Below are positions 16,310 through 61,731 of a DNA stretch of 64,000 nucleotides, piece by piece; within the stretch, counting starts at the first letter, position 1, and every line of letters begins with the position of its first letter. Where the stretch lies: NCBI GenBank assembly GCA_027923505.1, contig BROI01000020.1:496001-560000 (forward strand), written 5' to 3'. Below the pieces are notes generated by a model. That model worked only from the letters and a program-made list of their open reading frames with translations, was not told the DNA's origin and searched no databases. A program made the translations under genes and the position numbers. Origin of the DNA: Mayamaea pseudoterrestris (taxonomy: Eukaryota; Bacillariophyta; Bacillariophyceae; Sellaphorales; Sellaphoraceae).

Positions 16310-19300
16310 ATGATGACGCAAGGAGCAGCAACAGCCACCGCCGAGGACTTTACCTCCCAGTCGTCCGACTTTTATGAATGTAACAACGAAAGCTACGATG
16401 ACGACGACCAAATATTTCACGACGACAGTGACGACGACAGCGACATTTCCATAGTGTTGAAGCAAAAGCGGCAGCAACCAATGGCGCGCGGCAACGCCCT
16501 TGGTCACCGTCGCCAAGGCATCAATGTCACGCGCGTTGGCATGATGGTGACCATTGTCTTGATTGGCATTGCCATGTCCGTGGGCGTCTACCAAATGCTG
16601 CATCGCAAGGAGCATGCGGCAAACGAAGCAGTGGTGAGTTGGCGAATGCAATGGTTATGATAGTCGCTTTGACGCGTTTGTAATTGTAAATGTACTCATT
16701 CCTTCACATTATTCTTTCGTCATACTCTAGTACATTGACTTGACCATGACACTGGAGCAAGCAATCACTGCCAAAGTACAGTCCATGCAGCAATCCGTTT
16801 CAAACCTTGCTCAAGCCGTCACTCTATCAGCGTCATTGAACGAAGCGTCTTCCTTTCCCTTTGTGACCGTCTCCATGTTTGATGCGCTGGCGCAGCAACG
16901 GGAGCCTGGTGTCACGTCCATCATGTACGCGCCCAAAGTAGCGGCGTCGCAGCGAATCGATTGGGAGCAATACGCGCTGGAACATGCCGACAAATTGATG
17001 GTAGCGGCGAGTGCATTAATGGAGCAATCGACAATTAGCGATGCAACGAGTGACGCAGCCGCGACCAATGTAACCATTCCGGCCTTGATTCATCCCGAGC
17101 CAGCTTCAAGCGATGCATACTACCTTCCAGTCTGGCAAGTCGCTCCATTCAGCAGCAACATGATCAACTTCAATCTACGCTCGGCGCTTGGCGAAACCGT
17201 TTTTGACGCGGCGGCGGCAGCAAGCTTGGATCGACTCGTCGCCTGGACCAACGTTGGCATGAATGCCAGCTTTACGAATGTGAGCGAGCTGCCGTTCCAG
17301 TCGGGCCCGTCAATGACGCAGCAGCAGCAGCAGCAGCAGTCATTCATAGTGGCGCCAGTATATGCCGCAACAACAACTGATGCTGCTGGCAACGACATGA
17401 CGTCCCGTTCACCAGCAGTCGCAGTTGGCTTTGTCATTGGAAGTGTTGCTTGGAGCGACGTGCTGTCCAACTTGCTACCCTACGGCCAGTATGGCGTGAC
17501 CGTCGTATTGCAAAACACCTGCGGATCAAGTTTGACGTTTTTGCTGCAGCAGAGTAAAGCTCAGTTCATTGGCATTGGCGACTGGCACGATGGCGCCTAC
17601 GAACATACGGCTGTTTTGGTGCCATTGATGAACAACGCGACGACGACCGAAACGACAAGCCATATTGGTGTTTGCGACTATTTCATGACCTTTTACGCGA
17701 GCAATGTATACCAGGCGTCCATCCAGTCGGGGACGCCGTGGACCGTCACGCTGGCCGTCATGGGGGTCTTTTGCTTCCTCGCGCTGGCGTTTGCGTTGTA
17801 CGACGCCTACACGACCCGACGCAACCAGGCAGTTCTGGCGACGGCGACAAGGTCGCAGGCAATATTGGTGAGTATTGGTGTGCTGGTAGTTCATGTTGAT
17901 GACAAATATCGAATAATAGCGGTTGCAGTGTGATTTCCTAACGTTCCATATGTTCGCCATTTACGCAGGCAAACTTGTTTCCATCCAATGTTCGAGAACG
18001 TCTTTTTGCGGAAAAGGAAACGGAACAACCAAGAAAGCAACGAGCGAGGCAGCCGCAGAATTTAAAAGCTCTGATGAACAGTGGCTTGAGCAGCATGGAG
18101 GGAGAACTTGACGCCGACATGGGGTACAAGGGCAAGCCTATTGCGGACTTGTTCACCGAATCTACCGTCCTCTTTGCCGATATTGCCGGGTTTACTGCGT
18201 GGAGGTAAGATACTTCGAGTCCATGGGTATCACATCACTCACTTTCTCTCCATCTAACGTATTTGTTCCCGCCACAGCTCGCAACGCGAACCCGCCCAAG
18301 TCTTTACACTTTTAGAGACTCTATATCGTGCCTTTGATGAGATTGCAAAGCGACGCCGCGTCTTCAAGGTGGAGACGATTGGTGATTGCTATGTGGCCGT
18401 CACTGGAGTCCCTGAAGCACAAAAGGATCACGCGGTGCTGATGTGTCGATTCGCCCGCGATATGATGAACAAATGTCATGCTTTGACCAAACGTTTAGAG
18501 ACTACTCTGGGCCCTGATACCGGAGACTTGGACATGAGGGTTGGGATTCATTCAGGACCTGTAACAGCCGGTGTGTTGCGAGGGGAACGCTCGCGGTTCC
18601 AGGTACGTTGAAAGCTTCTCCTGAAGTCTCTCATTCTGCGCGACCCAACTCACTTTGCCTTTGATCGCCAACAACTCACAGCTCTTTGGTGATACAATGG
18701 TACGTATATTTCGCTTTTTATGTCGTCTGCAAGCAGAGACTTTACAATGCTCACAGTTGCCATGAATTCCACGATGTAGAATACTGCTTCCCGCACCGAG
18801 AGCACGGGCATTCGAGGCAAGATCCAGCTCTCGCAGGATACTGCTGATTTACTTAATAGCATGGGGAAGAGTCATTGGATAATCCAGCGCGAGGACAAAG
18901 TGTTTGCCAAGGGCAAGGGCGAGATGACGACCTTTTGGTTGCTCATGAGCAAATCCGATGCCGCTTCCAGCAGCGGCGATTCGGACATGTCGATGAGTAG
19001 CCGCTATGTAATCAAGGAAGTGGAAACACGCACAGTCATTGCTCAAATGGCATCGGAAAAGACGTCGCGTCTGGTGGAATGGAATTGCGAAGTCATTTTA
19101 CGACTGCTGAAGCAAATTGCATCGACTCGAATGCGTTTACCTCCTGGACGGAAAGGCAAGATTGACGAAACCAAGTTCATGTGCGCCGGAACGCTCGCGA
19201 TTGATGAAGTGAAGGAAATCATTTCGCTCCCAGTGTACCATGAGTCAAATACAGTTGACATTGATTTGGATAGCGTCCGCCTGCCCATGGCCGTCGTTGA

Positions 19301-20666
19301 CCAGGTGTACGACTTTGTGTCTCATATCTCTGCCTTGTACCGAGACAATCACTTTCACAACTTTGAGCACGCCTCCCATGTTACAATGTCAGTCACTAAG
19401 CTTTTATCTCGGATTGTGGCGCCGTCCGATATGGATGCAGCGGGCAAATCGTTGCATGACCACACGTATGGCATTACGTCATGTCCCTTGACCCAGTTTG
19501 CATGCATATTTAGCGCCTTGATCCACGACGTTGACCATTACGGAATTCCTAACACTTTGCTGGTCTTGGGCAAGACGCAACTCGCAGCCTACTACAAGAA
19601 TCAGAGCGTCGCCGAGCAAAACTCGGTGGATATTGCCTGGCACTTGCTCATGGACAGTTCGTACGCAGACATGAGAGCTGCCATTTACTCAACTGACGAG
19701 GAGCTGAATCTTTTCAGGGCACTTGTTGTCAATAGTGTCATGTCAACCGATATTGTTGATAAGCGGCTCAAGTTCTTGCGGAACGAGCGGTGGGACAAAG
19801 CCTTCTCCAAAAGATCAATGGGTGAAGATGCAAAGACAGTGAATGACCGAAAGGCTACCATTGTCATTGAGCATTTGATACAGGCAAGTGATGTATCACA
19901 CACGATGCAGCACTGGCATATATACCGCAAATGGAATGAGCGCTTCTTTTTCGAGTGCTGGACCAGCTACTGCGAAGGTCTCACTCCCGAAAACCCGGCC
20001 GACTCGTGGTACAAGGGCGAAATTGGATTCTTTGACTTTTACATTATACCACTTGCCAAAAAGCTCAAGGACTGCGGTGTCTTTGGAGTCGCTAGTGACG
20101 AGTACTTGAACTACGCGAACCGCAATCGTGCGGAATGGCAAGCCCGTGGCCAAGAAGTCGTTCAGGAAATGCTTAATAAAGCGCAGCAGTTGATGGAGGG
20201 ACCGCCCATGGAGTACACTCTCGGAATGCCTACCTCGCTGGCACCACCAGAAGCAGCGCCTGACATGGTCGAGCCAATGATGGAGTCTGTTGAAGCTATG
20301 AACGTAGCTCCCGCGTGTACGGCACCATCATCACTCGTGATTCATTCAACCACTCCCCGACCCATCGCTGCCAAGCTCACGTCGTCGCAAGTCATGCGGC
20401 CGCCGTCACCGTTCAAAACGGCAGTCTTGGTGGATGATGAAGATGGCGCAGTCTCGCCAAGCTTTGCTGCAACTGCTTCATTCATCGAGCCAACGCTGCA
20501 TTCAGGCGCGGAGGCGAGTGCAGTTGCATCTACGGCTGCGTTACCCAGCGGCGGCTCGTCCAATCATTCGCTCTCGACGCACAGTGCATCGTCAGCCTTT
20601 GAGCGAACAAGCTCCTTCAAGATGCCAAAGAAGGAACATGCTCCGAATGAAATGCTCTTCTTGTAA
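16310..20666 (+). CDS. receptor nucleotide cyclase-PDE fusion, copy 1
   Basis: Exons 16310-16633, 16731-17867, 17969-18204, 18278-18602, 18682-18699 (18-base microexon) and 18780-20666; 1308 aa, all GT-AG. Acidic cytosolic N terminus, TM1 about 76-96, ectodomain to about 445, TM2 about 446-465, class III cyclase about 515-720, PDE about 760-1120. Cyclase: metal Asp residues in VLFADIAGF and VETIGDCY, transition-state Asn/Arg in NTASR. The Glu of VETIGD predicts guanine, but the usual partner Cys is Gln (RFQLFGD). PDE: HNFEH near 873 and HDVDH near 929. It should make and break cGMP or cAMP. It differs from the others in lacking all ectodomain introns, in a unique intron after TM2 (after SQAIL), a (CAG)7 polyGln at 17319-17339 and a C-terminal Ser/Pro/Ala-rich tail of about 165 aa. 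Confidence 0.92.
17319..17339 (+). repeat. (CAG)7 trinucleotide repeat
   Basis: Seven CAG codons give a polyGln run in the ectodomain of receptor copy 1. It is absent from the paralogues and could vary in length between alleles. Confidence 0.9.
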
Positions 20667-20915
20667 TACCGGTATGATGCAAGGAAACGTTGCGAGTGCG
20701 GGGCCAGTGCTCTTGCACCACTAGAAAGATAACAACAACATAGATACATAATAAATAAGCTCCTCGTAAGTAGCTTCCGATGCATGTAAAAACCATGGCG
20801 CAATTGCTTTTGTTCGCTGCAAGCGAGTGTAGCGTTTGCTAGCTAAAGTGTGAGCGACTGTGAATACAATGTCGCATCACAACTCATTTTCGGCGAGCGA
20901 TGACTCGGTCGCGCC

Positions 20916-22579: not shown

Positions 22580-25500
22580 TTAGATGGTAACGCGAAACTG
22601 ATCAGGCGCTTCGTCCTGCATCTCCCGATTCACCTTTTCAATCATTTCTTGCACGACTTCCTCTCCTCTAGCTTCCCACTCTTTGCGGTTCCTTTGAGCA
22701 TAATTCAAGTACTCGTCACTTGAAACACCAAAGACACCGCAATCCTTTAGCTTCTTGGCAAGAGGAATGATGTAAAAGTCAAAGAAACCAATTTCGCCCT
22801 TGTACCAAGACTCACTTGGATCTTGAGCCGATCTGCCTTCCTTCCAGGCACGGAAACACTCAAAGAAGAAGCGCTCATTCCATTTACGGTAAATGTGCCA
22901 GTGCTGCATGGTATGCGAGACATCAGAAGCCTGGATTAAATGCTCAATGACAATTGTGGCTTTTCGGTCGCTAGCTTCCTTGGGGCTTTCGTGCGACACT
23001 TGCTCGGAGAATGCATTTTCCCAACGTTTATTGCGAAGAATCTTTAGCTCCTTGTCAACAATATCCGTTGCCATTACGCTATTGACAACAAGCTCCCGAA
23101 AGCGTCGGAGTTCGGCATCATTGGAGTAAATTGCCTTCCGCAAGTCAACATATGAGTCATCCATGAGCAAGTGCCAGGCAATATCCACCGAGTTCTGCTC
23201 TGCCACGCTCTTTCCCTGATAATAGTCAGCAATGTGCGCTTCCTCCTTCACCAATTGAGCATTTGGAACACCGCAGTGGTCAACATCGTGAATTAATGCC
23301 GAGAAGACACAGGCAAATTGAGTCAAAGGGTCACTCGTAATGCCGTATGTGTGGTCATGCAGAGCTTTATTCGATTCCTTGACTGACGCAACGTTGGACG
23401 GAGCAATGATTCTCGACAGGAGCTTTGAAACACTCATGGCAACATGGCTAGCATGCTCGAAGTTGTGGAAATGATTGTTGCGGTACAAGGCGGCAATGTT
23501 CGAGACGTAGTTAAAGACCTGGTCAACCACAGCCGAGTCGATTGTAATAGAATCAATATTGACGTCAGCATCATCCTTGCTGCGTACAAAGTCAGGAAGC
23601 GAAATGATTTCCTTCACCTCTTCGATTACAGCCGTGTCAGCCTGCATGTACGCATTCTCGTTGGCGGTCTGGTCACTGACTTCCAAATGTGCTGTAGCTA
23701 AGCGGCGCGCCGCAATTTGCTTTAAAATGCGAATCAAAACTTCACAATTCCACTCAATCAAGCGAGCAATCTTATCCGACACCAAGTTGCTCACTTGGTA
23801 GTCTTCTTTTAAGGCCACAGGTGCATCGCAGTCATCGTCGTCATCGGCATCGTCGCCGGACTTCGACGATCCTCCGGAAGACGACACGGCAGTGTCCGCC
23901 TTGAATGTGAGCCAAAAGGTTGACATGACTCCTTTTCCCTTGGCAACAACAACCTCTTCGCGCGGTGTGACCCAATGTCCCTTGCCGACCGAGGTGAGAA
24001 CGTCGGCCGTATCATGCGAAACTTGGATCTTGCCCTTCATGCCGGTGCTCTCTGTTCGTGATGCGGTGTTCTACGCAAAAGTGCAGTAACGCGTGTGAGT
24101 CAAGTGAGAGAGACAGTGTGTGCAAACGAAAGATGCAAGGAGGACAATAGAATACGCACCATTGTATCACCAAACAATTGGAAGCGCGACCGTTCCCCGC
24201 GAAGGACTCCTGCTGTGACTGGACCAGAATGGATGCCCACTCTCATGTCCAATTCTCCAGTGTCAGGTCCCAAAGTAGTCTCAAGTCTCTTCATAAGGAC
24301 CCTACTTCTGCTTAATATATCGCGGGCGAAGCGGCACATGATAACGGCGTGGTCCTTTTGCGGTTCTGGGACACCGGTCACTGCGACATAGCAGTCTCCA
24401 ATCGTTTCAACCTTGAAAACCCGCCGCTTCTTTGCAATTTCATCAAAAGCACGATACAAGGTCTCTAACAATGTGAATACTTGGGCAGGCTCACGCTGGG
24501 AGCTCCATGCAGTAAAACCAGAAATATCTGCGAAAAGAACTGTGGCTTCCGAAAACAAGTCGGCAATAGGTTTGCCAACGTAGCCCATCTCGCCGTCTTC
24601 AACGCCTGCCACACCGACGCCATCACCAGCCAACAGCGACTTCAAATTGCCATCATTTCGGCCAACAGCTTGCTTCTCCGCTTCCGCTTGCTCTGCATAG
24701 AGACGGTCACGAATATTGGAGGGAAAGAGACTCGAAAGAATGGCATGCGACTTGGTGGCGGCACTGAGCACGATGTTATTGCGCCTTTGAACGAACCGAT
24801 CGTAAAAAATGAAAGTCATGGCGACAAACAAAAAGATGACGCACACGGCTGCAACAACAATGCCCGGCAAAGTCGTCTTGACAGTGTTCGCATACTCTTC
24901 CGAGGAGTAGCAGACAAACGAGTAGTAGCAATGGCCCGATAGCTTGGGTGTGAGCTCAGGATTCAAATACTGGTAGAGAGGAATCTGCCTCGCGGAATAG
25001 TCGTATGCTGGATCATGCAAGTCGCCTTCTCCAAGATATGTTGCCTGCATCAGAAAATATTGTCGAGTTTGTCAGATGACAGCTTCATTCGCACCTCGCT
25101 ACATGCGCGCATGTTCCAACGTACCTTGTTTCCATTCAGCACATAGGTCGAGACCTCGCCGCAGCTATTCTGCAAGACAACATACACACCAGAGACCCCC
25201 TCTGGCAACACATTCCAAAGAAACCGATCAAACGGAACCAATGCCTGCAAGTAACCAACAACAAGTGCCGTCGGATTGCTCACTTCGGCAAACACTGGCT
25301 CCACGAGGTACGCGTGCGGCATGCTCAAGGCCTTGGCAACATTTAACTCATTGACAAGAAATTGCTCGTGGTAGGCCACATGTGTATCCGTTCCAAATAA
25401 ATCATCCTTGGCGAGCGCGGAAATGTCCACCATTTGCGTGTAAACGCCCTCTGCAGCGTAAAAGAAGAAGGAACGAGTGTTTGAGCATTCAATTGAATGA

Positions 25501-26608
25501 CAATGTCGATACGTGCTTTACACTTGTCACTCCACTCACCTCGCGCAATGGTCGCCGCGTTAAACACATTCTTGTCAAAGTAAAGCGTCTCCAGCTGGTT
25601 CGAGTTGATAAAGTACGTTGTGGATGGCAGCGGACTCACATGCCAGTACGGAGTGTAGGACGACGCCGTTTCCGCTGGCGAGCGCTCGCCACCATTTACT
25701 GCAAAAATTTGCGGATAAATGGGATCCATGGCTCCATATGTGACATCCTTGCTCGACACTAATCCAGGCGACGCCTGATACTGCTCAATGCTTTGCTGAA
25801 TCCATTGCTGCGCGTCAACACTGTAGGATTCCCAACTGACGCGGTCGCGGTCCCGGACAATGGGACTATAGACCAAACTTTCAATGCCCGACTGCTCCCG
25901 CGTGTGGCGCGCCAGTGTTTCAAAAATGTCAATGGACACAAACGGAAAGGTTTGGTTCTTCACCTCGGCGTACTCGGTGATGCTTTCCGCCAAGCCGCGC
26001 GTCGCCTGTGATTGTGATGATGATAGTTGATGATAAGTTATTAGTTGATTGCATGCAAGCGCCGTGCAATCCTTTCCCTTTTTTCAACACCAATCACATA
26101 TGACGTACCAAGTGAAGGTTCTTGACGTAAAAGGTCGACGAATCCTTGACGGTGGAAGCAAACGAATTGTACTATCGTAGCGTGAAAGACATCAAGCAAG
26201 AGAAGAAGCGTGAGTAAGTACCAGTCAGTCAGTGCCATGCTCTCCCATTCAATCAATCGTTCAATACATTCAAACACTACAACTACTTACACCCTCCATG
26301 TACTGACTCTCCTGCTCGGAGTTTAAAAAGTGAAAGGCACCCGCCGCGACGGCGGCTCCCACAATCACAATGAGCATCAATACCACCCACCGCCAGCAGC
26401 GAATGGTACTGGTTTCACGCGCCGACAGTTGCTTGATTTCCTCTTCATTCGAAAGTCCAGTTGCATGTGTAGTATGCCCGCTCGTTCCCGTGTTGGTGGA
26501 GGATTCCTCGCAGGCGCTGCTGTTTTCTTCGTCGTTGGGGGTTTCCGAATCGGAGTGAGCGTCGTTGTCGCCATGGTCCTTGTTGTTCATGAACTTGTCC
26601 ATCATCAT
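22580..26608 (-). CDS. receptor nucleotide cyclase-PDE fusion, copy 2
   Basis: Minus-strand exons 26291-26608, 26109-26171 (63 bases), 25540-26005, 25125-25450, 24160-25044 and 22580-24070; 1182 aa. The start is the first ATG of an ATG triplet at 26608; an in-frame ATG at 26770 could extend it by 54 codons. TM1 about 74-95, TM2 about 451-473. The ectodomain holds FPFVSIDIFETLARH, LVYSPIVRDRDRVSWESYS and the two Cys in VLQNSCG and GHCYY that all copies keep. The cyclase keeps ADISGF, VETIGDCY and NTASR; the PDE keeps HNFEHASH, HDVDHCG and ASDVSHTMQHW. LFGDTM is fused to the preceding cyclase exon here (no microexon). Donor GTGCGT follows it. It is the first of four head-to-tail minus-strand copies. 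Confidence 0.93.
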
Positions 26609-36883: not shown

Positions 36884-39028
<2,145 letters not shown>

Positions 39029-47410: not shown

Positions 47411-47732
47411 GATGAATGATAGAATGATTGTAGTAATTGCTGTTTCTTGCTTCAACCTTGATGAATCTTTCCCTCTCTATACCTGAAAGCTTTGCAAGAG
47501 ACGTGTTCGCAGGTTTTCCGGCAAGCAAACATGCGAGCATGCGAAAAAGAGACGTTTCGAACGAAGCGGCGACGTCGACGATTACGAGGATGACGTGGCA
47601 ATACCAGTGTGACGCGTGCGAGGTATTGGTACGACAAGCAGTCACAGTAAGACACTTTCATTTCACATTATTTGAAGTGCAACACCATTCAACGCAAACA
47701 TTCCTTTGTTCTTTCATCTCGCAACTGCCATA
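47411..47732. promoter_or_regulatory. divergent spacer, C2-like gene / TGS1
   Basis: 322 bases between outward-facing starts; expected to hold both promoters. No further feature was seen. Confidence 0.4.
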
Positions 47733-49562: not shown

Positions 49563-49801
49563 TGCTTTCAAATTGTCACTGCGTACACTAATTTTTGTAG
49601 ATGCCATGCCATTGAATTAACGTAGTAATGGCAAGCTATGTACTCGTATGTATGTCGACACCAAGGAATGGAGTAGCTCGTCATACTTTGTGTGTCGCAC
49701 CGCGGTGTCGACAACGCTGCGACGCTTGATTTTCTCGGACATCGCGACAATTCAAACGACCATGAGGATGGCACGACAGTCATTGCTCCCATGATGTGAC
49801 T

Positions 49802-51064
49802 ATGCGTCTCACTAGACGACACAATTCAAGGAAAAGACGTTGTAAATGCTCCTTGACTTTATTGCTAGCGTTGATTGTCTGTCTAGCCATTCTACTGCTC
49901 TGCTTGCTGCTGCAATGGGTTCCACTCGAATCAATTGCTTCAATCACCGCGCAAATAATACAAACCAATGGTTTGAAGACTCATGATGGTTCTCCACCGG
50001 GCGTCTTTCTACTTGGCATGCATCGATCCGGAACGTCCGCCTTATGCCGACTCTTGACGCAATCCTTTGACCTTGTCCTTGACGATGCTGATGCAGCTGG
50101 TAGCGACAAACTCAACAATGTCAATTCAAGTACACTCATTGGAGGCCGCTTCGCCAACGCGCAGGGCTACTACGAACGCACCGACGTGGTGTGGCAAAAC
50201 AGTCATTGGCTCGAGCAACTCAACCTTTCGGCCTTTTCTCACGTCAAGCGATTGCAGCGAGAACTGTCAGTGCAACTGCAACTGCAACAACAAAAGGACT
50301 CGACATATTTGCCACTGGATGGAAATGGGACGCACGTGATAGACTTTTTGATGCGACAACAAGCAAGAATGATGCACAGCAAGGAGCAAGAGCCTTCTTT
50401 ATTGCAGCAGCGACAGCAGCCATGGCTCGTCAAGGATCCTCGTTTATCATTAACCCTTCCGCTGTGGCTCCATCACTGGCGAAAAGCCAACGCCAAGCAG
50501 CAAGACCCTCATTTTGCAGATCCAGCAATTATCATTCTGTATCGACATCCAGTCCAAGTAGCTTGGAGCTTGCACAACCGCGACAATTGCGACTACAATC
50601 GCGCCTTTGGCTTGTACGTCGTGTACCATCAGCTGGCGTTGCAAGATTCTGCGGCTAGTAAGTGTCGCATATTCGTCAGTAACCATGACTTGCGAACGCG
50701 GCCGCGTGAAACGTTGCGTTACATATCAAAGAAGCTACAAGAGTGCGACATGAACGTTGGTAGCGGAGGCATGGAAAAGGTCAAGTCGAACCTCTTTCCC
50801 TCTTACGCAGCAGCATCGCAACATGTAACACTGCAACGCGACCAACAGTTCCTTCCCGACTGCACGTTGGACTACAAGGACCGCGAGCGGCCACTCGATA
50901 TTCGTTGGAAGTTTTTAAACTTGACCATGTCTTCGTCGCAGCAAGTTTTGGACAAGAAGCGGGTTCGGCAAGCCATGCTGCTTTACTGCGACATACAGAG
51001 TGGACGGGCCATGCAAGACGATTATGTGAATGGAAACGAATGGAACATGCTGGAGCTGGCGTAG
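49802..51064 (+). CDS. type II membrane sulfotransferase-like protein
   Basis: A single exon of 420 aa. The ATG at 49802 gives a basic tail (MRLTRRHNSRKRRCK) and one membrane anchor at about 17-39, a Golgi type II topology. The PAPS-binding P-loop-like motif is LLGMHRSGTSALCRLL near 70-85. Further conserved pieces are YYERTDVVWQNSHWL, VKDPRLSLTLPLW near 210 and IILYRHPVQVAWSLHNRD near 245 (the 3'-phosphate motif RxP...S of sulfotransferases). This set matches the sulfotransferase family that decorates polysaccharides or glycoproteins. The acceptor is unknown; in a diatom, sulfated wall or mucilage polysaccharide is a reasonable inference. No truncation is seen. Confidence 0.8.
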   Translation: MRLTRRHNSRKRRCKCSLTLLLALIVCLAILLLCLLLQWVPLESIASITAQIIQTNGLKTHDGSPPGVFLLGMHRSGTSALCRLLTQSFDLVLDDADAAGSDKLNNVNSSTLIGGRFANAQGYYERTDVVWQNSHWLEQLNLSAFSHVKRLQRELSVQLQLQQQKDSTYLPLDGNGTHVIDFLMRQQARMMHSKEQEPSLLQQRQQPWLVKDPRLSLTLPLWLHHWRKANAKQQDPHFADPAIIILYRHPVQVAWSLHNRDNCDYNRAFGLYVVYHQLALQDSAASKCRIFVSNHDLRTRPRETLRYISKKLQECDMNVGSGGMEKVKSNLFPSYAAASQHVTLQRDQQFLPDCTLDYKDRERPLDIRWKFLNLTMSSSQQVLDKKRVRQAMLLYCDIQSGRAMQDDYVNGNEWNMLELA

Positions 51065-51307
51065 CAATGGAGACGGTGGTTGTGAAGCCGCTTGGTTAGC
51101 GCTCGGCAATGTTCAAACCTGGCAGTCTGGCCCATGAACTCTTCGGACCTTGCTGTATGCCGACGTGCAGATTGTGATGACGCGTACTGGCATACGAACT
51201 AGGCTACGACGATCGTAATTACTTAAATATATAGTGCTTCATTTCAGCATTCATAACTCTAAAATATTATATCCCCTTCCCTTTCCCTTCTATTTGTGTA
51301 TAGTGCG

Positions 51308-54300
51308 CTAGTCTCGAAGAAACGACGATACGCAACCCCTCAATAACCTAATTCGACGCTGCCCTTTTGAAACAATCGACTGCGAACTCTCATCGACAAC
51401 TCCGCCGTGGATCAGGTCGTACTCGTCGTCAGCCAAACTTCTGTCGCTGCAAGTCATTGCCTGATGACGGTACAGTCGGCGAGGCGCCGTGGTTGTATTG
51501 GCCTTTCGCAATGATTCATCCGCAAAGGCAGTAGCGTCGCTGACAGCAGTTGGTGATGCCTTGCTCGTTTTGGTAGCTTCGTTCAGCCGCTTCTCAATCA
51601 GTGTTGGATGAAGATCAATGGATGACTGCTCAGGAGTACTCCAGGTGTTCAAGGTAGAATCAAACGGAGCCGCGCTAGTCGGCGAAGACTGCCGCGATGA
51701 TGCAGATCGTGAATGGTAAATACGCGAAGATTCAAGCAAGTTCCTTGACTGCAACTGGTTGCGACCCCTTTCCGTGACAAGCTGCTGTTGCTTTCTCATA
51801 GTTTCAAGTTTTTGATCAAAGGCCTTGCGACTAGCTACAATTTCAGCGTTTGACGCGGCATCGTCGTCTCCTTGGGCAATGTGAAAAGGATCAAAAATTT
51901 CCGCCGAGCTGCCAGTGACTGAGTTGTCTTTCGTTACACTCCATTGACGCTGCCACTCGCTCGAGCCGCAGTCGTTTGGTGACTTGCTTGGTGTAGTATC
52001 GCTGCGAGCCCTTCTGAGTGACACTGGTGTCGACTTTATTACTCGATGGTTGCTGTCAATTGACGACGTGCTCATGTCAAGTTGAATTGGTGGATCGCTA
52101 AACGTCTTTGTATCCGGCCAAGCTGCTTCCCATGCGTCGACGCTGAATCCTTTGTCTACCACTGCAGACTCGTTGGCAAACGTGTTCGTGTCAAAGGCCA
52201 CAAAGTCACTAGACATGGTTGGATCTGCTTTCTGCAACGACAGACGGCTCCGTTGGACCCTCGAGGCGCTTCCTGGGGGAGAATAAGAACGTCGACGACT
52301 TCGTAAAAGCTCTGGACTGACTGGCTCATGACGGCTCAAATGTCTAACGCTTTCGCCCCGACCAACCGAGGCAGTACGATGAATGTTCAACGTTTCATTC
52401 GCCATGCGCCGCTGCTTCCAGTCTTCCACGCGAGCTTTGCGGAGCGCCAAACGCTCGGCAAAGTCATCTTCACCATGGCCAAGTTTGGTTGCGTCGGGGT
52501 CGCCACTTTGGATGGCTTGCAGTTGGATTGGATCATTAATAACAAGAGAAGCACTCTCCTTGGTGTTCGCAGATACGTTTGGCCTGGACGGACCTGTGTC
52601 CTCGCCATTCAACATGGCAGCATCCTCCGCAACATGTTTTCGCGCCAAATCCAAATCCTCCTTCCAGGGAGATAATCTCGGCTCCGCGCCAAGTCGAGGC
52701 TCCATCGGAACAGACTCACCAGCAGATGCAAGGAACGATGACTCAAACATTTCAATTGACCGTGCCGCCGCCAAACGTCTTTCAGTGTGCGACTCGTTAC
52801 TCGTCGACGCCGCAACTTGGTGAAGCTTGTTCACGCTAGACACTGAAAACGGCGAGTTCGACCGCACTCCAGCAGACTCTTGTCGCCGTCCTTCCATGGA
52901 CTCGTCACTCTCCAAATGATCCGAACGGTCGCGGCGGTGACTCCTTGATAATGTTCCCTTCGTTTCAACTCGCTCGCGCGGCAATGGCCGATCCATCCAA
53001 GGCGACGTTGGTCGTTCCCAGTGGCCGTAACGCACTGGATAGTGGTTGGCACGAGCGCGACTGCCGTCAACTAATCTCGTCAAAGGAGTGACTCGTCCAC
53101 TACTACTAGTCGCGGCAGTATTTTCTTCCTCAACATGGTGCGAGCTACCTGTTGTAGTTGCCACACTTGCGTCGCGTCGCCGCTCCCGCACCTGGTCGAG
53201 TGCTTGCTGGGCGTGGCGACGACTACTTTCGCTCGTCTTGCCCAACGAGGAGAATTGCTCAAACTTTTTGATCGCATCGTGCACCCTGACACTGACTGCT
53301 GGCGTGGGAGAATTTTCGCGACTCTTGTAGCGTTCCTCCTCGTCCAAGACTTGCTCAAAGCCTTGCTCGTCAGAGTCTTCGTGAAACGCGAGTTCCAGGT
53401 TGCAACCACCATCATTTGCGACATGCCGACTCTCCTCGTGACGCGAAATGGGCGAAAGCATGACGCCGTCAAAGGGATTGGAACTATTCAAGCTTGAGTC
53501 ATTTTGCGCGTGGCAATCCACAGATCCTTCCTCTTCGTCGTCATCCTCTTCATCTGCAATCTGCTGCTGCGAGTAGAGGAGCGTCTTGGTGTCGTACGCG
53601 GCAGCGGAGCGCCCTCCATACTGGTGCTTTATTGCCGCCTCGTTCCGCAGGAGAGGCAGCTGGCTGCCATGGCTCTGGTAGCTCGTGTGAAGCAGCCTAC
53701 GACTCGCGCGACTAGCAGACGACGATGCATGCGACACCAAGCTGCTCACACTGGCATCCTTCTCCTCCTCGACGCGCACCAACCATTGCTCCGTCTTGGT
53801 CTCGTCGTCACATTCAGTCTCCGCCGCATGCTGCCGCTGCTCGTCATGCTCTAGTAGTACACTCTGCACGTACAAATTGTGCTGCTCCCGATCCAGCAAC
53901 TGCGCCACCTGCTCCAAGTACATTAGCAAATCGTCCAGTTGCGACTGCGACTTGTTTCGCAATAGACTATACTGAACGTTGTGATAATGAGGATGGGTGG
54001 GCAGTACCTTTGCTAAAAAGTGACGCAGTCGACTGCCAATCAGGTAGGCCTCAATGAGCTCGTCGCGCGAGTCAACGGCGTGCTCCAGGAATTGCTCCAG
54101 GACCTGTGAAAAAGTGGTACAGAATATTAGGGACATGTATCAAGTCCATTAAATAATACAAGCATCTACATGTTTCACTCACGCGATTCGCCACTCCATA
54201 GTATTGCTCGAGACTGCCGCTCACGTCGAGACGAATGCTATTGCAACTGCCGTCGCGCTGCAGCAGGCGCTCGCGAAACTGACGGCCCGGCATGCGCCAG

Positions 54301-54431
54301 CGCTGCTCCGACTCGGTGCTTTGCTGCGAAAACGAGCTGGATGTGTTGATCAGTAGTTGTTGTTGAGGAGAAGGAGATGGAGCAGGAGATGACGAGTGGT
54401 AGGGATGATGAGACAATGATGGTTGCTGCAT
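51308..54431 (-). CDS. 1014-aa disordered protein with helical N-terminal domain
   Basis: Minus-strand exons 54183-54431 and 51308-54103, donor GTGAGT, acceptor CACAG, phase 0. The start is the ATG at 54431. Residues about 65-170 form a helical domain: LEQYYGVANRVLEQFLEHAV, then IEAYLIGSRLRHFLAKVLPT, HPHYHNVQYSLLRNKS and LDDLLMYLEQVAQLLDREQ. The 'A..IG.RL..FL...LP.HP.Y' phrase recalls the helical N-terminal domain of AMSH/USP8-type deubiquitinases and MIT-type bundles, but no protease domain follows. The other 840 residues are Ser/Arg/Glu/Asp-rich, with many SR and RS pairs, and probably disordered with phosphorylation sites. A trafficking or ESCRT adaptor is possible; no function is assigned. 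Confidence 0.7.
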
Positions 54432-55018
54432 CTTGTCGCTGATTTTTTGGCAGCTGCCTGATGCTGCTACGTGACTTGTTACAGCTTCGATTTTCTCTCG
54501 TCGTCTCTATGAGTATACGGTAGTATATTGGTCAGTGCTATTGCTTGCTCAAACAGAGAGAGAGAGACGATGCAGAGAGGAGGCCAACCGATGATGCAAG
54601 CGCATTGGATGTTTCGAAATGCACGAGTCGCGCGTGCTGTGACGGACGAAACGGCGTGGCCGGCTCGCTGGGAGTTTGGGGACCGTCGGTAAGTGCCACT
54701 GCGCCAAGCTTTGCACGCGAGCCGAGCTAGCAACGGCGATAGTCACGAAATTCTGTCATGGCAGTTCGAACCGACACGAACAACAACAATTTGTAACCTA
54801 ACAGCAGCCGTTGCCACGTCCTCTACTATAAACGATGCCACGTCTAGTAGAGCTGGATGGTAGGAGATACATTTATTATGAGAATTGACAGCAAACGCAA
54901 GAGCATGCAAATATATATTGCCCTTTTCCCACATAGAGGCAGAGTTCGCTCAATAGTTTCCCCAGCCTAACCACTTTAAACAAAACTACGACTCTCGAGC
55001 AAACTTGTCATAATTACA
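54432..55018. other. intergenic, (AG)n microsatellite only
   Basis: 587 bases with an (AG)6 run at 54555-54567. The overlapping 84- and 65-codon minus ORFs and a 61-codon plus ORF are not convincing. Confidence 0.4.
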
Positions 55019-55684
55019 CTACGAAACAATACACTGCGGAAACAGTAGCGACGCTTGCACTTGCTGCGCGACCGAAAGAGCCGACGTTTGCCGACGCCAC
55101 GCGTCATACACTGCGTCTGTTTCGTTCCACTCCAACGCCAGTTCCTCGTGCGACCCACTGATGCGTCTTCCATCATGCAATACCACCAAGGAAGGAAGCT
55201 GCGTCACGTTGAAGCAAGCTTGCAGCGTGGGTGTCAGGTGAGTGTAGGCAAAGCCACTGCCGCAAAGGCAGGCGTCAATGGGTTGGGTGACGCGATTAGA
55301 AGTACTACTATCGACTTTGTCCTCATTGACAGCGTCGCTGCTGCTCGTTTCGGACTCCGATGCAATGGCAATGCAAGCTACTTGTTGCGCGTGAGCTTCG
55401 ACGAGACGAAACAGTGCTTTGCGAATCGTCAGGGAATGCTGCTGGGTCAAATCCATGAACAACAAAACAACAATGTCTTTGCCATTCACCAGATCCAGCA
55501 AGTCTATTATGCGTGGTGGTATTGAATCATCTTGTTGCTGCTGCTCCCGCTTTCGTCGCGCACCAGGCCGGAGTCGCTTGGTCGTTTCCGTCCAAGCAAT
55601 GGCATCGTGGTCATAAAACGTGACTTGATCTGGTAGAAATCGCAGCAGTCCAGGAACTCGTCGTGGTGGTGGTGGCTGTTGCAT
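55019..55684 (-). CDS. thioredoxin-fold protein without CxxC
   Basis: A single exon of 221 aa from the ATG at 55684. The N-terminal part reads PGLLRFLPDQVTFYDHDAIA, then a basic Gln-rich linker. Residues about 60-180 look like a thioredoxin/nucleoredoxin-like fold: IDLLDLVNGKDIVVLLFMDL then ALFRLVEAHAQQVACIAIAS and, after a Ser/Asp-rich insert, LQACFNVTQLPSLVVLHDGR. That last phrase matches the cis-Pro strand of thioredoxins (V..LPSL...DG). No CxxC redox pair is seen where expected (LTQQHSLTI), so a redox role is doubtful. Length fits a small single-domain protein. Function is unassigned. Confidence 0.6.
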   Translation of the reverse strand: MQQPPPPRRVPGLLRFLPDQVTFYDHDAIAWTETTKRLRPGARRKREQQQQDDSIPPRIIDLLDLVNGKDIVVLLFMDLTQQHSLTIRKALFRLVEAHAQQVACIAIASESETSSSDAVNEDKVDSSTSNRVTQPIDACLCGSGFAYTHLTPTLQACFNVTQLPSLVVLHDGRRISGSHEELALEWNETDAVYDAWRRQTSALSVAQQVQASLLFPQCIVS

Positions 55685-56027
55685 CTTATTGAAGCAGGAT
55701 TTGTAGAAAGCAGCTTATCTCGATGGTTGTTTATGTTTTGGTGGTGGTCGGATGGTCGTGTGCCGCGCCGCGACGGATCAAGTGAGACGCGTTACGACTT
55801 AATCAGTGCCGCATGATACAGTACGAGTCAGCTATCCGCGGGCTGCCAACCAATCTGTGCCATGTTTAACAGTACGTGTTTTCCGCTACATTTGTTTTGC
55901 TCACTCTACTGTATATAATCGATATGCAATTACATTTTTTATCGTCAGTTACGTCAGCAAAGACAAGCTCGCGTGACGATTAAGTAGCAAGGACAAGGAT
56001 TTTCACACAATCCCTTGGATAAACAAA
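55685..56027. other. intergenic, nothing recognised
   Basis: 343 bases between the start of the thioredoxin-fold gene and the stop of the expansin-like gene. No ORF or repeat of note. Confidence 0.4.
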
Positions 56028-56936
56028 CTACACCGGCATGACGCATTGCGTCCCCGTCGCCACGGGCCAAGCATTGCTAAAGCAACCAAAAATGGATCCA
56101 GTCGTTCCGTCGCTAAAGGTCAATTGAAAGCTCACCGCCTTGTTTGTAGCACCCGTGAGACTCGCCGCCCAGGTGGCGCAGCTCACTCGAAGCATTGGCG
56201 TCGTGATTGTTCCAACTGTGATTGAAGCCGCCTGGACGCCAGTCACTCCGCCGGCGAACAAGACTTTGGTGTAGTAAGCATTGTTTCCATCCAACACGAC
56301 AGCCGCCAGTGGTGAGCGTTGGCAGTTCACCTTGGCGTAGGCCACTGGAAAGACGCCAGTGTTGGCACCCGATATAGCTTGATGCGCCGCCACGTAGCAG
56401 TCAAAGTGTTTCGAGCCGCCCGCGCCAAAGTCAACGACTTGAACAATGGTTGAACCTGCTCTTCCTAAATCACTTCCACCGCTTCCACTGTATGACACGC
56501 GGTAGCAGCTTCCACAAGAAACGCCACTTTCGTACAAGTCGTCACTGACGGCGCAGTACATGCCCGGAGTCACATAGCTGCGGAGCCACGGTGTGTTTCC
56601 GCCAGACGTTGACGTCGACGAAGCATACTCGCAGGATGACCCTTGCACCGCGCTGGGACTCGTCGTCCACATGGTTAATTGACCGCCCGTGATGCATTTG
56701 GACTGCTGGGGGCATTGCAGCTGACAAACGTGAAACACTTTTTTGTTGGTGCGCTGATCCAAAAGGCGGCACTGCGTCTTGGTAATGGCTTTGCAAGTCA
56801 AAAGACTATTGTTGACTTTGACGCGGGTCGAACCAAGGTTGTTGCAGGTTGGTGAAAAGGCAGCATGAGCGACTGAAATGACGCAGCAGATCAAAAGGAG
56901 ATAAGTGCACATGTTTGGGGGTGACGAAAGCTTCAT
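56028..56936 (-). CDS. secreted expansin-like (DPBB) protein
   Basis: A single exon of 302 aa from the ATG at 56936; a second Met eight codons on (MCTYLLLICCVISVAHA) opens the signal peptide core. A short Cys-rich N-terminal region (CKAITKTQCRLLDQ, VCQLQCPQQSKC) precedes the double-psi beta-barrel domain: PGMYCAVSDDLYESGVSCG then CYRVSY, VVDFGAGGSKHFDCYVAAHQ and FPVAYAKVNCQR. This order matches expansins and EG45-type proteins. The HFD motif that holds the conserved Asp of expansins is present (HFDC, near residue 176). The C-terminal 90 residues (VLFAGGVTGVQAASITVG, then VSFQLTFSDGTTG) fit the second, carbohydrate-binding beta domain. It should loosen or bind wall polysaccharide. It is divergent from receptor copy 6. 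Confidence 0.82.
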   Translation of the reverse strand: MKLSSPPNMCTYLLLICCVISVAHAAFSPTCNNLGSTRVKVNNSLLTCKAITKTQCRLLDQRTNKKVFHVCQLQCPQQSKCITGGQLTMWTTSPSAVQGSSCEYASSTSTSGGNTPWLRSYVTPGMYCAVSDDLYESGVSCGSCYRVSYSGSGGSDLGRAGSTIVQVVDFGAGGSKHFDCYVAAHQAISGANTGVFPVAYAKVNCQRSPLAAVVLDGNNAYYTKVLFAGGVTGVQAASITVGTITTPMLRVSCATWAASLTGATNKAVSFQLTFSDGTTGSIFGCFSNAWPVATGTQCVMPV

Positions 56937-57444
56937 TCTACTTGTATTAGGAGGTAGGAGCAACGGCAAGCCTGCTTGGGGGAAACGAAATAATGAAGAT
57001 CTGCAGCCTCAGCAAATGCTAGAGTGGAAAGCTGTGCAATATTTCCCCAATCAACTAATTCAAAGACTCCTCAGTCTTGGAGTTCACCAGGTCATGGCCA
57101 ATGTTGCTCTATTGATGGATTGTGGACGGCACGTAAAGCGTGATTTTGATCTTGCTCGTCGTTCTTCTGTTGGTCGTAAAATCGAAAATCAATCGTGAAT
57201 GACGTAAGATGACCATGAAACGTCACTCTGTCACACAATGACTTTGAAACGTCGTGGGGCAATGCAAAATGTGACCCATTGACATTTTCGTTCTCCGCGC
57301 CGCCAGTCCTCATGGTGCTTCCACGCATGGAACGAGAAGGCGTGAACGGTGTCGCTCATCCCTCTCTATACTATACAATACGCTACAATACAATAGCAAG
57401 CATAAGAGTCTCACTCTCGCTTAAATATTGCTACTGCTGCTGCA
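56937..57444. promoter_or_regulatory. divergent spacer, expansin-like / receptor copy 6
   Basis: 508 bases between outward-facing starts; it includes AT-rich short repeats (actatacaatacgctacaat region, about 57370-57395). Expected to hold both promoters. Nothing else recognised. Confidence 0.4.
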
Positions 57445-60400
57445 ATGGACGACGAACACAAGGACGAAACGAACGCTTTGCGCAGTCACGACGAAAGCTG
57501 CAGTCGCAGCCACAACGACTACTCTAACAGCAGCGACTACGACGACGACGCCGACGACTCTGATTTATGGGACAGTCAGTCCAGCGCCAATGGCGGCAAC
57601 TCTCCCAATGACGACGTGGTTCATTCCGAAGTCCAGCAGCTGAGTCGGCGCGAAACGCGCGCCATTCGGGCCTGGCGAGTGTTCATCTTGCTGCTCATTA
57701 CCTGCGTCGGAGTTGGCGTCTCGGTTGGTTTCTGGGTAATCTTGAGCAACGAGGAGCATGATCGATACATGGAATCGGTATGTTTAAACGAATTATAGTA
57801 GTGGAAGATGGATATGTAGAGGATGCAAAATGTTACAAACGGATGCAGGATTTCCATTCCATTCGCTGCTGCTTCGTCCTATCGCTCACCCTCGGCCATT
57901 ATTTTCCTTCCTCACAATTTTTTCTACATATTTACTATTTTTTGTTCAGTACCAAACGTTTGCCCGCTCCATTCAGGACACGACCAAATTTTACGTGAAC
58001 AATTTACACCACGCCACGCGCGACCTGGCGCAAACGATTACCGTCTCCAGTCTGGTGCGCAACCAAACCTTTCCCTTTGTGTCTGTCGGTTTGTTTGAAA
58101 CGCTGGCGCGGCACTCGCTGCAGCAATCCGCCATGGAGGCGCTGCTGTATAGTCCATTGGTGAGTGATGGTCAGCGAGCCGAATGGGAGCAGTATAGCGT
58201 GGCGCATCAAGATTGGATTGCGGCCAGTCAGTCGCAGTATATGCAAGTGTCAAGTACTGGGAATGGCGCTACTGGAACGTTGCAGTCGGACAGTAACGTT
58301 TACACGGAGGCAGGTAGTGTGCCGATTGCACCATATATTTGGAGTGCTACAACGACAAACGGCAGTGCTACGCTCCGAGTACCGGAACCAGCAGACAGCG
58401 GACCGTATTTGCCAACCTGGATGGTGTCGCCGCTGCCAACGTCGGGCAACTTTTTCGTCAACGCGAATCGCTTCAACGCTCCCATGCTCCACGAGCAGTA
58501 CTACTTTACGGCGGGAGTGGCGCGAGGTGAGTTTGTAGTTGTTGTTACTGTTGTTTAGTTATATTGAATGCGATGAAGCTTGGCCATGCACGCGTCGATC
58601 TTGTCTCATGTCAATTCATTCATGTTCCACCAACGCAGAAGGTGTATTTTCGCACGTTCCCGACTTGCTGCACGAAACAACGAAGGCATCCATTGACTTT
58701 GACCATTACAGTCATCGCGAGATTGACGGCAGCGTCAAAGCCGATCGCGCGTCTGATAAGGGTTTGCCACACGCCATGTTAATCGAGCCCGTCTTTGACA
58801 CTCCCAACGAGAAAACGGCAAACGTGGTTGGATATGTCGAGGGAGTCGTCTTGTGGAACCACTACATGACGGGGCTGGTGCCGGATGGTGTCAATGGAAT
58901 TTGCTGCGTGCTGCAAAACTCGTGTGGGCAGTCGTTTACCTTTACGTTGACTGGAAGCAAGGTATGTGTAAATTGTGAAAAAACACTGGCGCATCATTGT
59001 CCATTCAACATTCATCTGCATGTTGCTGTCGCTGACACTCCACTTTCATCTGCATTTTGCTGTTGCTGACACTCCATTTGCTGCTGCTTTGATAGCCAGA
59101 ATACGTCGGAGTCGGCGACTTGCATGAGTCGGCTTACGATGGCACTGCGGTGTACGTTCCGCTCTACGACTACATTTACCCCAACGCAACGCAGCAATTA
59201 GACGGCCACTGTGAGTATTACATGACTATCTACTCGAGCGCCGAGTTTGAGGAGCAAGCCACGACAAATTTGCCAGCGGTGGTGACGGCGGCGGCTGCCG
59301 GCTTGTTTGCTTTGGTGCTGCTAGTGTTTGTCTTGTATGACTGCTTTGTAGAGCGACGCAACAGCATTTTGCTCGAGGCGGCGGAAAAGTCACACAATAT
59401 ACTTTCGAGTCTTTTTCCTCAAAATGTTCGGGAGCGATTGTTTGCGGAACAAAAGGAGGCAGAAATATTAGCGAAGCAAAATGACGGTCAACGCGCTCGC
59501 AACCTCAAAGGGTATATTGACGGCGGCATGAATGGTGTGGTTGAGGAGGCTGACGATGAGATGGGCTACAAGGGCAAGCCAATTGCCGACTTGTTTTCCG
59601 AGAGTACTGTCCTTTTTGCTGATATCGCCGGATTTACTGCTTGGAGCTCTCAGCGCGAACCAGCGCAGGTTTTCACTTTGCTTGAGACGTTGTATCGAGC
59701 CTTTGATGAGATTGCAACGAAACGTCGAGTTTTTAAAGTTGAGACAATTGGAGATTGCTACGTTGCAGTCACTGGTGTACCCGAACCGCAAAAGGAGCAT
59801 GCTGTCATTATGTGCCGCTTTGCACGAGACATGATGGTATCTACACGCTCACTTGTCAAGCGACTAGAAACAACGCTTGGACCAGACACGGGTGACTTGG
59901 ACATGCGAGTCGGTATTCACTCGGGACCTGTCACAGCTGGTGTTTTAAGAGGCGAACGGTCGCGTTTCCAGGTATGTGTCGAACTTCGTTTTTATTTTGT
60001 TTGAGCTGGGTTGGCTTACACTGCTTTTTTATTAAACGTTGCTACAGCTATTTGGGGATACAATGGTACGTATAATACGCGGGGCATGCCTGTATACGCA
60101 CCTTTCATGATTGTCGTAGCTCAACTCTTTTTGCCTTCTGTAGAACACTGCTTCGCGAACTGAAAGCACTGGGATAAAGGGAAAGATCCAACTTTCGCAA
60201 GAAACAGCAGACCATCTCATTGGATCTGGTAAGGCACATTGGATTGCACAGCGCTCCGATAAGGTTGTTGCAAAAGGCAAAGGAGAAATGACAACATATT
60301 GGCTAGTTTTCGCATCGTCAGGCGGTTCTTCTGGGCCGTCGCATGCCAACTCTTCGGAGCAAGATCCACAGGAAACGAAACTTGAGGTAGAAGAAGAAAC

Positions 60401-61604
60401 TGCTCCCAAGACGGATGCACAACAAGCACGCGTTGCAACTGAAAAGACGTCGAGACTGGTGGCTTGGAACGCCGACGTCCTGTTGCGCCTACTGAAGCAA
60501 ATGGTAGCCCGACGAAAGTTGCAGAAACTTCCACTTCAGGGAAATGGGACAGTAGATGAGAATGTTTACCTACAAGACGGCAACTTGATCATCGACGAGG
60601 TCAAAGAGATCATTACGCTTCCCACGTACGACACGCATGGCAACGCTGATGAGCTCGACTTGGATCAAGTGGAGATTGGCAATGATGTTGTGGAGGCGTT
60701 GTTCGACTATGTTTCCAATATTGCTGCGTTATACCGAAACAATCCCTTTCATAATTTTGAGCACGCATCGCATGTGACTATGTCGGTCACAAAACTACTG
60801 TCTCGCATCGTCGCGCCTTCCGACATTGAATACAATCAGGCGTCGGGCAAATCGTTACATGACCACACATATGGTATTACGAATGATCTTCTGACGCAGT
60901 TTGCGTGCGTGTACAGTGCCTTGATTCATGATGTTGACCACAGTGGTGTTCCAAATGCCCAGCTTGTTGAAGAGAAGAGCCAGCTGGCGCAATTTTACAA
61001 GAGTCAAAGTGTCGCCGAGCAAAATAGCGTCGACTTGTCCTGGAACTTGCTAATGGAGCAGCGCTATTCGGCTTTGCGGCGTACCATTTACACCAACGAA
61101 GCTGAATTTCATCGCTTCCGTAAACTGGTTGTGAATAGTGTAATGGCAACGGACATTGTAGACAAGGAGCTAAAGACGCTGCGGAATAAAAGGTGGGAGG
61201 CTGCATTTTCAAACATTGAAAGTGTGGAGAGTATTGATGACGTCCGCAACCGCAAAGCCACCATCGTCATTGAGCATTTAATCCAGGCCAGCGACGTTTC
61301 TCATACAATGCAGCACTGGCATATATACCGCAAGTGGAATGAGCGATTCTTCTTCGAATGTTTCCGTGCGTGGAAGGAAGGCAGGTCAGCTCAGGATCCC
61401 AGTGAGTCTTGGTACAAGGGAGAAATGGGCTTTTATGATTTCTATATAATACCATTGGCCCGTAAGTTGAAGGATTGTGGCGTTTTTGGGGTGTCAAGCG
61501 AGGAGTATTTAAATTATGCGCAAAGGAACCGCAAAGAATGGGAAGCAAGAGGGGAAGAAGTCGTCCAAGAAATGATTCTAAAGGCAAAAGAGATGAATTT
61601 TTAA
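57445..61604 (+). CDS. receptor nucleotide cyclase-PDE fusion, copy 6
   Basis: Exons 57445-57777, 57950-58526, 58639-58961, 59096-59971, 60048-60065 (18-base microexon LFGDTM) and 60144-61604; 1195 aa. The start is the ATG at 57445 (MDDEHKDETN). TM1 about 79-100, TM2 in the stretch LFALVLLVFVLYDCF. The ectodomain holds FPFVSVGLFETLARHSLQQS and MLIEPVFDTPNEKTANVVGY, with the Cys pair in LQNSCG and GHCEY. Cyclase: ADIAGF, VETIGDCY, RFQ|LFGDTM|NTASR. PDE: HNFEHASH, HDVDHSGVPN, ASDVSHTMQHW, GEMGFYDF. Intron layout equals copy 4, which suggests close kinship. The intron at 58962-59095 holds a 34-base tandem duplication. It sits 14 kb from copy 5 beyond eight unrelated genes. Confidence 0.93.
59011..59078 (+). 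repeat. 34-base tandem duplication in an intron of receptor copy 6
   Basis: The unit ttcatctgca...gctgacactcca occurs twice with a 34-base period and about 90% identity, within the intron 58962-59095. Confidence 0.8.
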
Positions 61605-61731
61605 CTTACAAGCTACGCTAACGCTAACTGCATTGATCAATATTCTCTCACGTAATACGATTCATGTAATGGTACGACGATTAGTGTAAAATGCCTTGAA
61701 TTTAACCATCCTCGACCGCATGATGAACCAT

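What the first reader, a model, noticed from the sequence alone, without database searches (positions are those of the whole stretch)
16310..61604. Six-member cluster of receptor cyclase-PDE fusion genes
Six full-length gene bodies with the same architecture (acidic N terminus, TM1, ectodomain, TM2, class III cyclase, HD-type PDE) lie in 45 kb: + at 16.3 kb, four head-to-tail on - from 22.6 to 43 kb, and + at 57.4 kb. They are separated by unrelated single-copy genes such as SRP54 and TGS1. Bifunctional receptor cyclase/PDE proteins are known, from memory, in pennate diatoms in sex-pheromone signalling. An expanded, ectodomain-diversified cluster would fit a chemoreceptor family. The role in mating is inference.
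Basis: partly seen in the sequence, partly recalled or inferred. Interest (0 to 1): 0.75.

Follow-up and report, generated by a model that had tools for sequence, protein, structure and literature searches.

The report
Diatom receptor cyclase-phosphodiesterase gene cluster
A freshwater diatom carries a cluster of genes for cell-surface sensors that both make and destroy a messenger molecule; such genes are already known in other diatoms, but the outer sensing part of at least one of them is predicted to be built like the plant cytokinin-hormone receptor, which would make the long-unknown sensor testable.

The parts
16310..20666 (+). gA: receptor cyclase/PDE (public MPSEU_000870300, 1308 aa, with a long Ser/Pro-rich C-terminal tail); exons 16310-16633, 16731-17867, 17969-18204, 18278-18602, 18682-18699, 18780-20666
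16731..17864 (+). gA exon 2: ectodomain plus TM2; CHASE fold predicted; Pfam CHASE 28.1 bits (cut-off 25)
22580..26608 (-). gB: receptor cyclase/PDE (MPSEU_000870500, 1182 aa)
27136..31326 (-). gC: receptor cyclase/PDE (MPSEU_000870600, 1162 aa in the public model) with an in-frame TGA at 29837-29839
32093..36284 (-). gD: receptor cyclase/PDE (MPSEU_000870700, 1188 aa); start placed from the public protein
39330..43010 (-). gE: receptor cyclase/PDE (MPSEU_000870900, 1124 aa); most divergent window copy, pairs in the tree with a copy on contig C9 (94/62); start placed from the public protein
57445..61604 (+). gF: receptor cyclase/PDE (MPSEU_000871700, 1195 aa); exons 57445-57777, 57950-58526, 58639-58961, 59096-59971, 60048-60065, 60144-61604
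47487..64000 (.). segmental duplication reaching at least to the window end, second copy at C20:563362-584834 (carries TGS1, a sulfotransferase-like gene whose Pfam match is below cut-off, gF and a DUF2252 gene)
58839..63343 (.). tract of raised identity (95% against 85% upstream) between the two duplicate segments: from codon 371 of gF through TM2, cyclase and PDE into the DUF2252 gene; the left edge is well supported, the right edge (63343) is not

Best explanation
The cluster encodes receptor-type bifunctional nucleotide cyclase/phosphodiesterases of the known diatom GC/PDE family. Most likely mechanism. A CHASE-type sensor outside the plasma membrane, held between two transmembrane helices, binds a small molecule. 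TM2 continues as a long helix toward the class III cyclase (modelled: helix 470-517, then 520-539, with low confidence beyond about residue 510), so ligand binding changes cyclase activity and cGMP output. The class I PDE in the same chain removes cGMP again, which would keep the signal local and short. The copies arose by old tandem duplication plus one younger segmental duplication: the output half is kept under strong purifying selection while sensor and N-terminus drift apart, giving several sensors wired to the same output. Shown by sequence: architecture, copies, kept catalytic residues, divergence pattern. Predicted: CHASE fold (modelled for gA; the gF model has the same order of secondary-structure elements). 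Inferred: cGMP as product, ligand sensing, locality of the signal, one ligand per copy.
Against: CHASE is weak at sequence level: no PDB sequence match for the gA ectodomain at E 10 or better, only a spurious repeat match for the family profile, hhalign to this genome's own CHASE histidine kinases scores only 0.60 on its 0-100 scale, 31 of 36 family members show no CHASE match, the gA exon passes the cut-off only as a sum (no single stretch at E 0.001), and gA as a whole protein scores 24.1 bits, just under 25. The second purine residue of the cyclase is Gln, not the Cys of animal guanylyl cyclases (recalled), and the PDE has Glu where PDE4B has Gln, so substrate is not settled by sequence. 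No activity, ligand or expression data. NG86 for gE and gF gave omega 1.49 for the N-terminus (54 codons), too short to weigh.
Confidence: 0.8

Rival explanations
1. The cluster is specifically a set of sex-pheromone receptors or mating-recognition genes.
For: In S. robusta 17 genes with a GC domain respond to SIP in both mating types, 8 of them GC/PDE fusions, all 8 upregulated (PMC8027222, passage); the P. multistriata homologue is regulated 1.9-fold in sex and has Ka:Ks 0.92 (PMC5485032, passages); some S. robusta cGMP-family genes are among sex-upregulated genes with high piN/piS, read by its authors as suggesting positive selection (PMC7335047, passage).
Against: The wider cGMP family in S. 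robusta is its most pleiotropic one, responding to sex, bacteria and many abiotic stresses (PMC7335047, passages; PMC6688387, passages). Upregulation does not make a protein the receptor. Ectodomain omega was below 0.5 in the six pairs where it was finite. Nothing was learned about mating in Mayamaea.
Confidence: 0.15
2. The ectodomain belongs to the general double-Cache (dCache) group rather than to CHASE proper, so cytokinin receptors are no special guide to the ligand.
Against: AHK4 and PcrK stand about 4 Z units above every other entry and are the only Foldseek hits at E 0.001 or better; Pfam CHASE recurs in the family (5 of 36).
Confidence: 0.2
3. The copies are functionally redundant: birth-and-death duplication with relaxed constraint on the ectodomain, no separate ligands.
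For: Neighbouring copies recur in the genome; gC has a stop codon; C2_547 has lost PDE metal residues; ectodomain omega in gF/C20_580 is 0.14 against 0.02 (GC) and 0.09 (PDE), consistent with weaker constraint as well as with diversification.
Against: Old copies with near-saturated silent sites keep all catalytic residues and, apart from gC, open frames, which redundancy alone does not explain.
Confidence: 0.25
4. The enzymes make and break cAMP rather than cGMP.
For: The second purine-contact residue is Gln, not the Cys of animal GCs (recalled); closest solved PDE sequences are cAMP-specific PDE4; one source names many relatives 'class 3 adenylate cyclase'.
Against: Glu replaces the adenine-selecting Lys in 21 of 21 modelled copies (alignment), the closest solved structures of the cyclase domain include a eukaryotic guanylyl cyclase at 40% identity, and Moeys argues for cGMP (PMC4726125, passage).
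Confidence: 0.12

Closest known systems
Seminavis robusta SIP-responsive GC/PDE (PMC4726125; PMC8027222; passages)
   Same: Short N-terminal intracellular part, two TM segments, extracellular stretch, C-terminal GC then PDE; same protein family (S. robusta proteins P0107, P0118, P0135 in the tree; whether one of these is the SIP-induced gene was not checked).
   Different: Seven of eight C20 genes sit in a clade with three unnamed database proteins only; no pheromone data here; this report adds a fold for the extracellular stretch.
S. robusta tandem-enriched cyclase / cGMP families (PMC7335047, passages)
   Same: Tandem expansion of cyclases in a benthic raphid diatom.
   Different: Locus-level detail here: eight copies on one contig, a segmental duplication and a conversion-like tract. 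The main text of the paper does not mention CHASE.
CHASE cytokinin receptors AHK4/CRE1 (3t4j, 3t4k, 3t4s) and Xanthomonas PcrK (6k62)
   Same: Predicted ectodomain fold and its place between two TM helices.
   Different: Output is cyclase+PDE, not histidine kinase; 13-15% identity; ligand unknown; Asn in the five window genes aligned where the AHK4 cytokinin-binding Asp is recalled to lie.
Dictyostelium adenylyl cyclase ACG (named as a CHASE enzyme in PMC5447177, passage)
   Same: CHASE-type sensor with a class III cyclase.
   Different: No PDE in the same chain (recalled).
Rhodopsin-PDE and rhodopsin-GC fusions (5vyd, 6aob)
   Same: Membrane sensor fused to a PDE or GC of similar structure.
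   Different: Light sensor; one enzyme only, not both (recalled).

Membership tests
Diatom receptor-type GC/PDE | cyclase then PDE in one chain | tested here: met
   six of six window genes; gC only if its TGA is spliced out or read through
Diatom receptor-type GC/PDE | two TM segments N-terminal to the enzymes with an extracellular stretch between | tested here: met
   hydropathy in P0001, P0002, P0026, P0032, P0036, P0040; which side faces out is inferred
Diatom receptor-type GC/PDE | induction by sex pheromone | not testable with these tools
   no RNA-seq held; Mayamaea genome paper PMC9724779 not held
CHASE sensor domain | fold | tested here: met
   gA ectodomain only; gF model has the same order of elements, but its own search list was filled by GC and PDE chains
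CHASE sensor domain | curated Pfam profile over cut-off | tested here: inconclusive
   gA exon 28.1 bits over cut-off 25 but 24.1 as whole protein; P0112 25.3; 5 of 36 members at E 0.1 or better, 31 without a match
CHASE cytokinin receptor | cytokinin-contacting Asp (recalled D262 of AHK4) | tested here: inconclusive
   aligned column is Asp in 20 and Asn in 13 of 33; Asn in the five window genes in that alignment (gC not in it); the register rests on a weak alignment and a recalled motif
CHASE cytokinin receptor | binds cytokinin | not testable with these tools
   needs binding assay
Class III guanylyl cyclase | two metal Asp, catalytic Asn and Arg (positions recalled) | tested here: met
   21 of 21 modelled Mayamaea copies
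Class III guanylyl cyclase | Glu at first purine position | tested here: met
   21 of 21
Class III guanylyl cyclase (animal type) | Cys at second purine position (recalled) | tested here: not met
   Gln in 21 of 21
Class I PDE | metal-binding His/Asp set | tested here: met
   8 of 8 C20 copies; 20 of 21 overall, C2_547 degenerate
Class I PDE (mammalian type) | purine-selective Gln (invariance recalled) | tested here: not met
   Glu in 19 of 21 (Asp 1, Gln 1); alignment to PDE4B

The most novel reading that the evidence does not exclude
The diatom GC/PDE family, including the members that answer the sex pheromone in other diatoms, is a lineage-specific CHASE chemoreceptor repertoire: cytokinin-receptor-type sensors wired to a self-terminating cGMP module, expanded in local clusters, with different small-molecule ligands for different copies. 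An Asp/Asn found in all 33 proteins aligned, at the place where AHK4 is recalled to grip cytokinin, would be a shared ligand anchor.
Probability: 0.35. Interest if true: 0.7.

Novelty: new member of a known kind. Interest (0 to 1): 0.45.

Why it matters
The receptors for diatom pheromones are, as far as the papers I saw say, only hypothesised. PMC8027222 describes these proteins as having just an 'extracellular stretch'. If that stretch is a CHASE sensor, the ligand class, pocket residues and binding assays known from cytokinin receptors can be applied at once to diatom sexual and bacterial signalling. The cluster also shows sensor halves diverging while output halves are conserved, and in one duplicate pair apparently homogenised.

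Tried and rejected
Collapsed assembly duplicates: rejected by near-saturated silent sites in 27 of 28 C20 pairs and, for the younger pair, by 64 residue differences and intron identity of 0.80-0.87.

Positive selection on ectodomains: not found. NG86 was run on 9 of 28 pairs among the eight C20 copies. Ectodomain omega was finite in six (0.14, 0.15, 0.32, 0.36, 0.37, 0.48); dS was infinite in three (gB-gC, gC-gD, gE-gF). Only gF/C20_580 is clearly unsaturated, so the test is weak. The one omega above 1 was the short N-terminus of gE-gF (1.49).

Cluster as purely species-specific: not supported, because three unnamed database proteins (P0003, P0029, P0037) nest inside the cluster clade. One origin of the whole cluster is not shown: gE groups with C9_606 (94/62).

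Sequence-only identification of the ectodomain: phmmer against PDB gave nothing; the family profile gave one repeat artefact; hhalign against two CHASE histidine kinases of this genome was weak. A genome search with the CHASE family (E up to 10) found only those two kinases, not the GC/PDEs.

Second family-profile protein search returned mostly unrelated cyclases; its rows P0013-P0024 were left out. In one search, 16 non-Mayamaea rows showed gaps or odd residues in several cyclase columns, probably misaligned PDE-only proteins, so counts outside Mayamaea are approximate and I give none from it.

Full-length gF fold searches were filled by GC and PDE chains and do not test its ectodomain.

CHASE in diatom GC/PDEs in print: I did not find it. 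Nine paper searches ran; only searches used the word CHASE, giving 4, 5 and 0 papers, of which I looked at passages of four (PMC7700396, PMC10338860, PMC6944256, PMC5447177). The word CHASE occurs 0 times in the main texts of PMC4726125, PMC8027222, PMC5485032 and PMC7335047; supplements were not seen. PMC7700396 and PMC6944256 mention CHASE receptor homologues in diatoms, the latter as histidine kinases. Only open-licence papers are held, so absence is not shown.

Full report
WHAT IS THERE. The window is bases 496001-560000 of a 673,252-base contig (C20) in a 30.6 Mb genome. Six genes carry a class III cyclase followed by a class I PDE. Splice modelling by a simple coding model and then by spliced protein alignment gave receptors with an acidic N-terminus, TM1, an ectodomain of about 290-360 residues (five of the six), TM2, cyclase and PDE; TM segments by hydropathy are. 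Public proteins for all six were returned: MPSEU_000870300, 000870500, 000870600, 000870700, 000870900 and 000871700, and the models agree with them apart from gC.

HOW MANY. Family searches of the whole genome gave 58 cyclase and 33 PDE exon-level rows. Pairing rows by hand on the same contig and strand leaves 27 cyclase+PDE loci (a lower bound); the four remaining PDE rows, all on contig C6, have no cyclase row on that contig. Eight of the 27 are on C20 between 471 and 583 kb; other groups are on C11 (82-97 kb and 395-410 kb), C9 (600-607 and 736-743 kb) and C2 (547-555 kb). I modelled 21 of the 27. Outside this genome, 1666 database proteins match the cyclase-PDE region of gF at E 1e-60 or better among 7989 scored candidates, the best 120 being listed; the list includes PDE-only proteins. 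Named relatives in it come from Fistulifera, Epithemia, Phaeodactylum, Seminavis, Nitzschia and Amphora, among others.

HOW THE CLUSTER AROSE. A tree of 54 cyclase-PDE cores (21 from Mayamaea, 33 that I chose from the returned proteins) places seven of the eight C20 genes with three unnamed database proteins in a 100/99 clade; gE pairs with a copy on C9 (94/62). Because those unnamed proteins nest inside, several duplications predate the split from those relatives. Fourfold sites are near saturation in 27 of 28 C20 pairs. The exception is gF and its copy at C20:578-582 kb. These sit in a segmental duplication: window 47487-64000 matches C20:563362-584834 in three pieces, at 76%, 78% and 86% identity, including TGS1, which therefore is not single-copy. 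Along the alignment of window 50765-64000, identity averages 85% up to 58.8 kb and about 95% from there to 63.3 kb. The step at 58839 has a likelihood gain of 133, the largest of 300 block shuffles being 34.5; two further steps, at 52466 (90% to 84%) and 63343 (95% to 88%), gain only 22-23 and are not secure. The main step also shows at third positions (0.82 against 0.90), in introns (0.80 against 0.87) and in the flanks (0.82 upstream, 0.90 downstream), so it is not only selection; a gene-conversion tract is the simplest reading. It begins at codon 371, in the last third of the ectodomain, and covers TM2, cyclase, PDE and much of the neighbouring DUF2252 gene. Of 64 residue differences between the two proteins, 38 lie in the ectodomain, 11 in the N-terminus and 14 from TM2 to the end.

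SELECTION. Among the eight C20 copies, leaving out gF/C20_580, ectodomain identity is 24-74%, GC 69-90% and PDE 60-78%. For gF/C20_580 omega is 0.14 in the ectodomain, 0.02 in GC and 0.09 in PDE. The sensor therefore changes faster, but under purifying or relaxed constraint as far as this test can see.

ONE IMPAIRED COPY. gC has an in-frame TGA at 29837-29839. The public protein lacks 26 residues there (P0032), which an intron would explain. Whether that intron is real I cannot tell.

THE OUTPUT. All 12 catalytic positions examined carry the family residue in 8 of 8 C20 copies. The cyclase has Glu where adenylyl cyclase 8 has Lys, the guanylyl type, but Gln at the second purine position. The PDE has Glu where PDE4B has the purine-selecting Gln; Glu is present in 19 of 21 Mayamaea copies. 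My inference is that Glu in both pockets suits guanine, which would fit cGMP at both ends. A PDE9A structure titled Q453E, which by recall is the same position, is among the fold hits (3qi3), so the substitution is tolerated structurally.

WHAT IS KNOWN. S. robusta GC/PDE was found as a SIP-induced gene and its authors proposed that its extracellular part, or an activator of the protein, senses SIP+; they also wrote that to their knowledge the domain combination is found only in diatoms (PMC4726125, passages). Eight GC/PDE genes are SIP-induced (PMC8027222, passage). Seven GCs, two with a PDE, are upregulated by Maribacter exudates with SIP (PMC6688387, passages), and the cGMP family is the most pleiotropic and a tandem-enriched one in that genome (PMC7335047, passages). 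So the family, its clustering and its link to sex are known in kind. CHASE as the identity of the ectodomain I did not find in print in the searches listed under Tried and rejected.

VERDICT. A real cluster, a new instance of a known diatom receptor family, with one useful addition: a predicted fold, and hence a testable ligand class, for its sensor. The mating role remains an untested possibility among several stimuli.

Noticed in passing
window 29837-29839 (- strand): In-frame TGA in the gC ectodomain; the public protein lacks 26 residues there, as if by an intron.
   Followed up: partly
window 58839-63343 against C20:578-584 kb: Conversion-like tract of about 95% identity inside an 85% segmental duplication, starting in the last third of the gF ectodomain.
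   Followed up: yes
G000:C2:547-548 kb (L024): Cyclase/PDE copy whose PDE has lost metal residues (His to Asn/Arg, Asp to Glu) while the cyclase residues are kept: possibly a cyclase with a dead PDE.
   Followed up: partly
G000:C2:1159999-1160577 and C2:1976419-1976970 (L031, L032): Two CHASE proteins that read as hybrid histidine kinases, i.e. plant-type cytokinin-receptor architecture in a diatom (kinase part judged by eye).
   Followed up: partly
P0028, P0031 (proteins): One cyclase and two PDE stretches with the same two-TM layout; P0028 comes from a transcriptome whose label begins Tiarin (a ciliate, if Tiarina; could be diatom prey). P0025 has two cyclase and two PDE stretches, perhaps a fused gene model.
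   Followed up: partly
PDE position 1136 of P0001 and family: Glu replaces the purine-selecting Gln of PDE4 in 19 of 21 Mayamaea copies and in at least 90% of the 36 aligned family members.
   Followed up: partly
G000:C6:667-679 kb: Four PDE rows without a cyclase row on the contig, clustered; may be double-PDE proteins like P0033.
   Followed up: no
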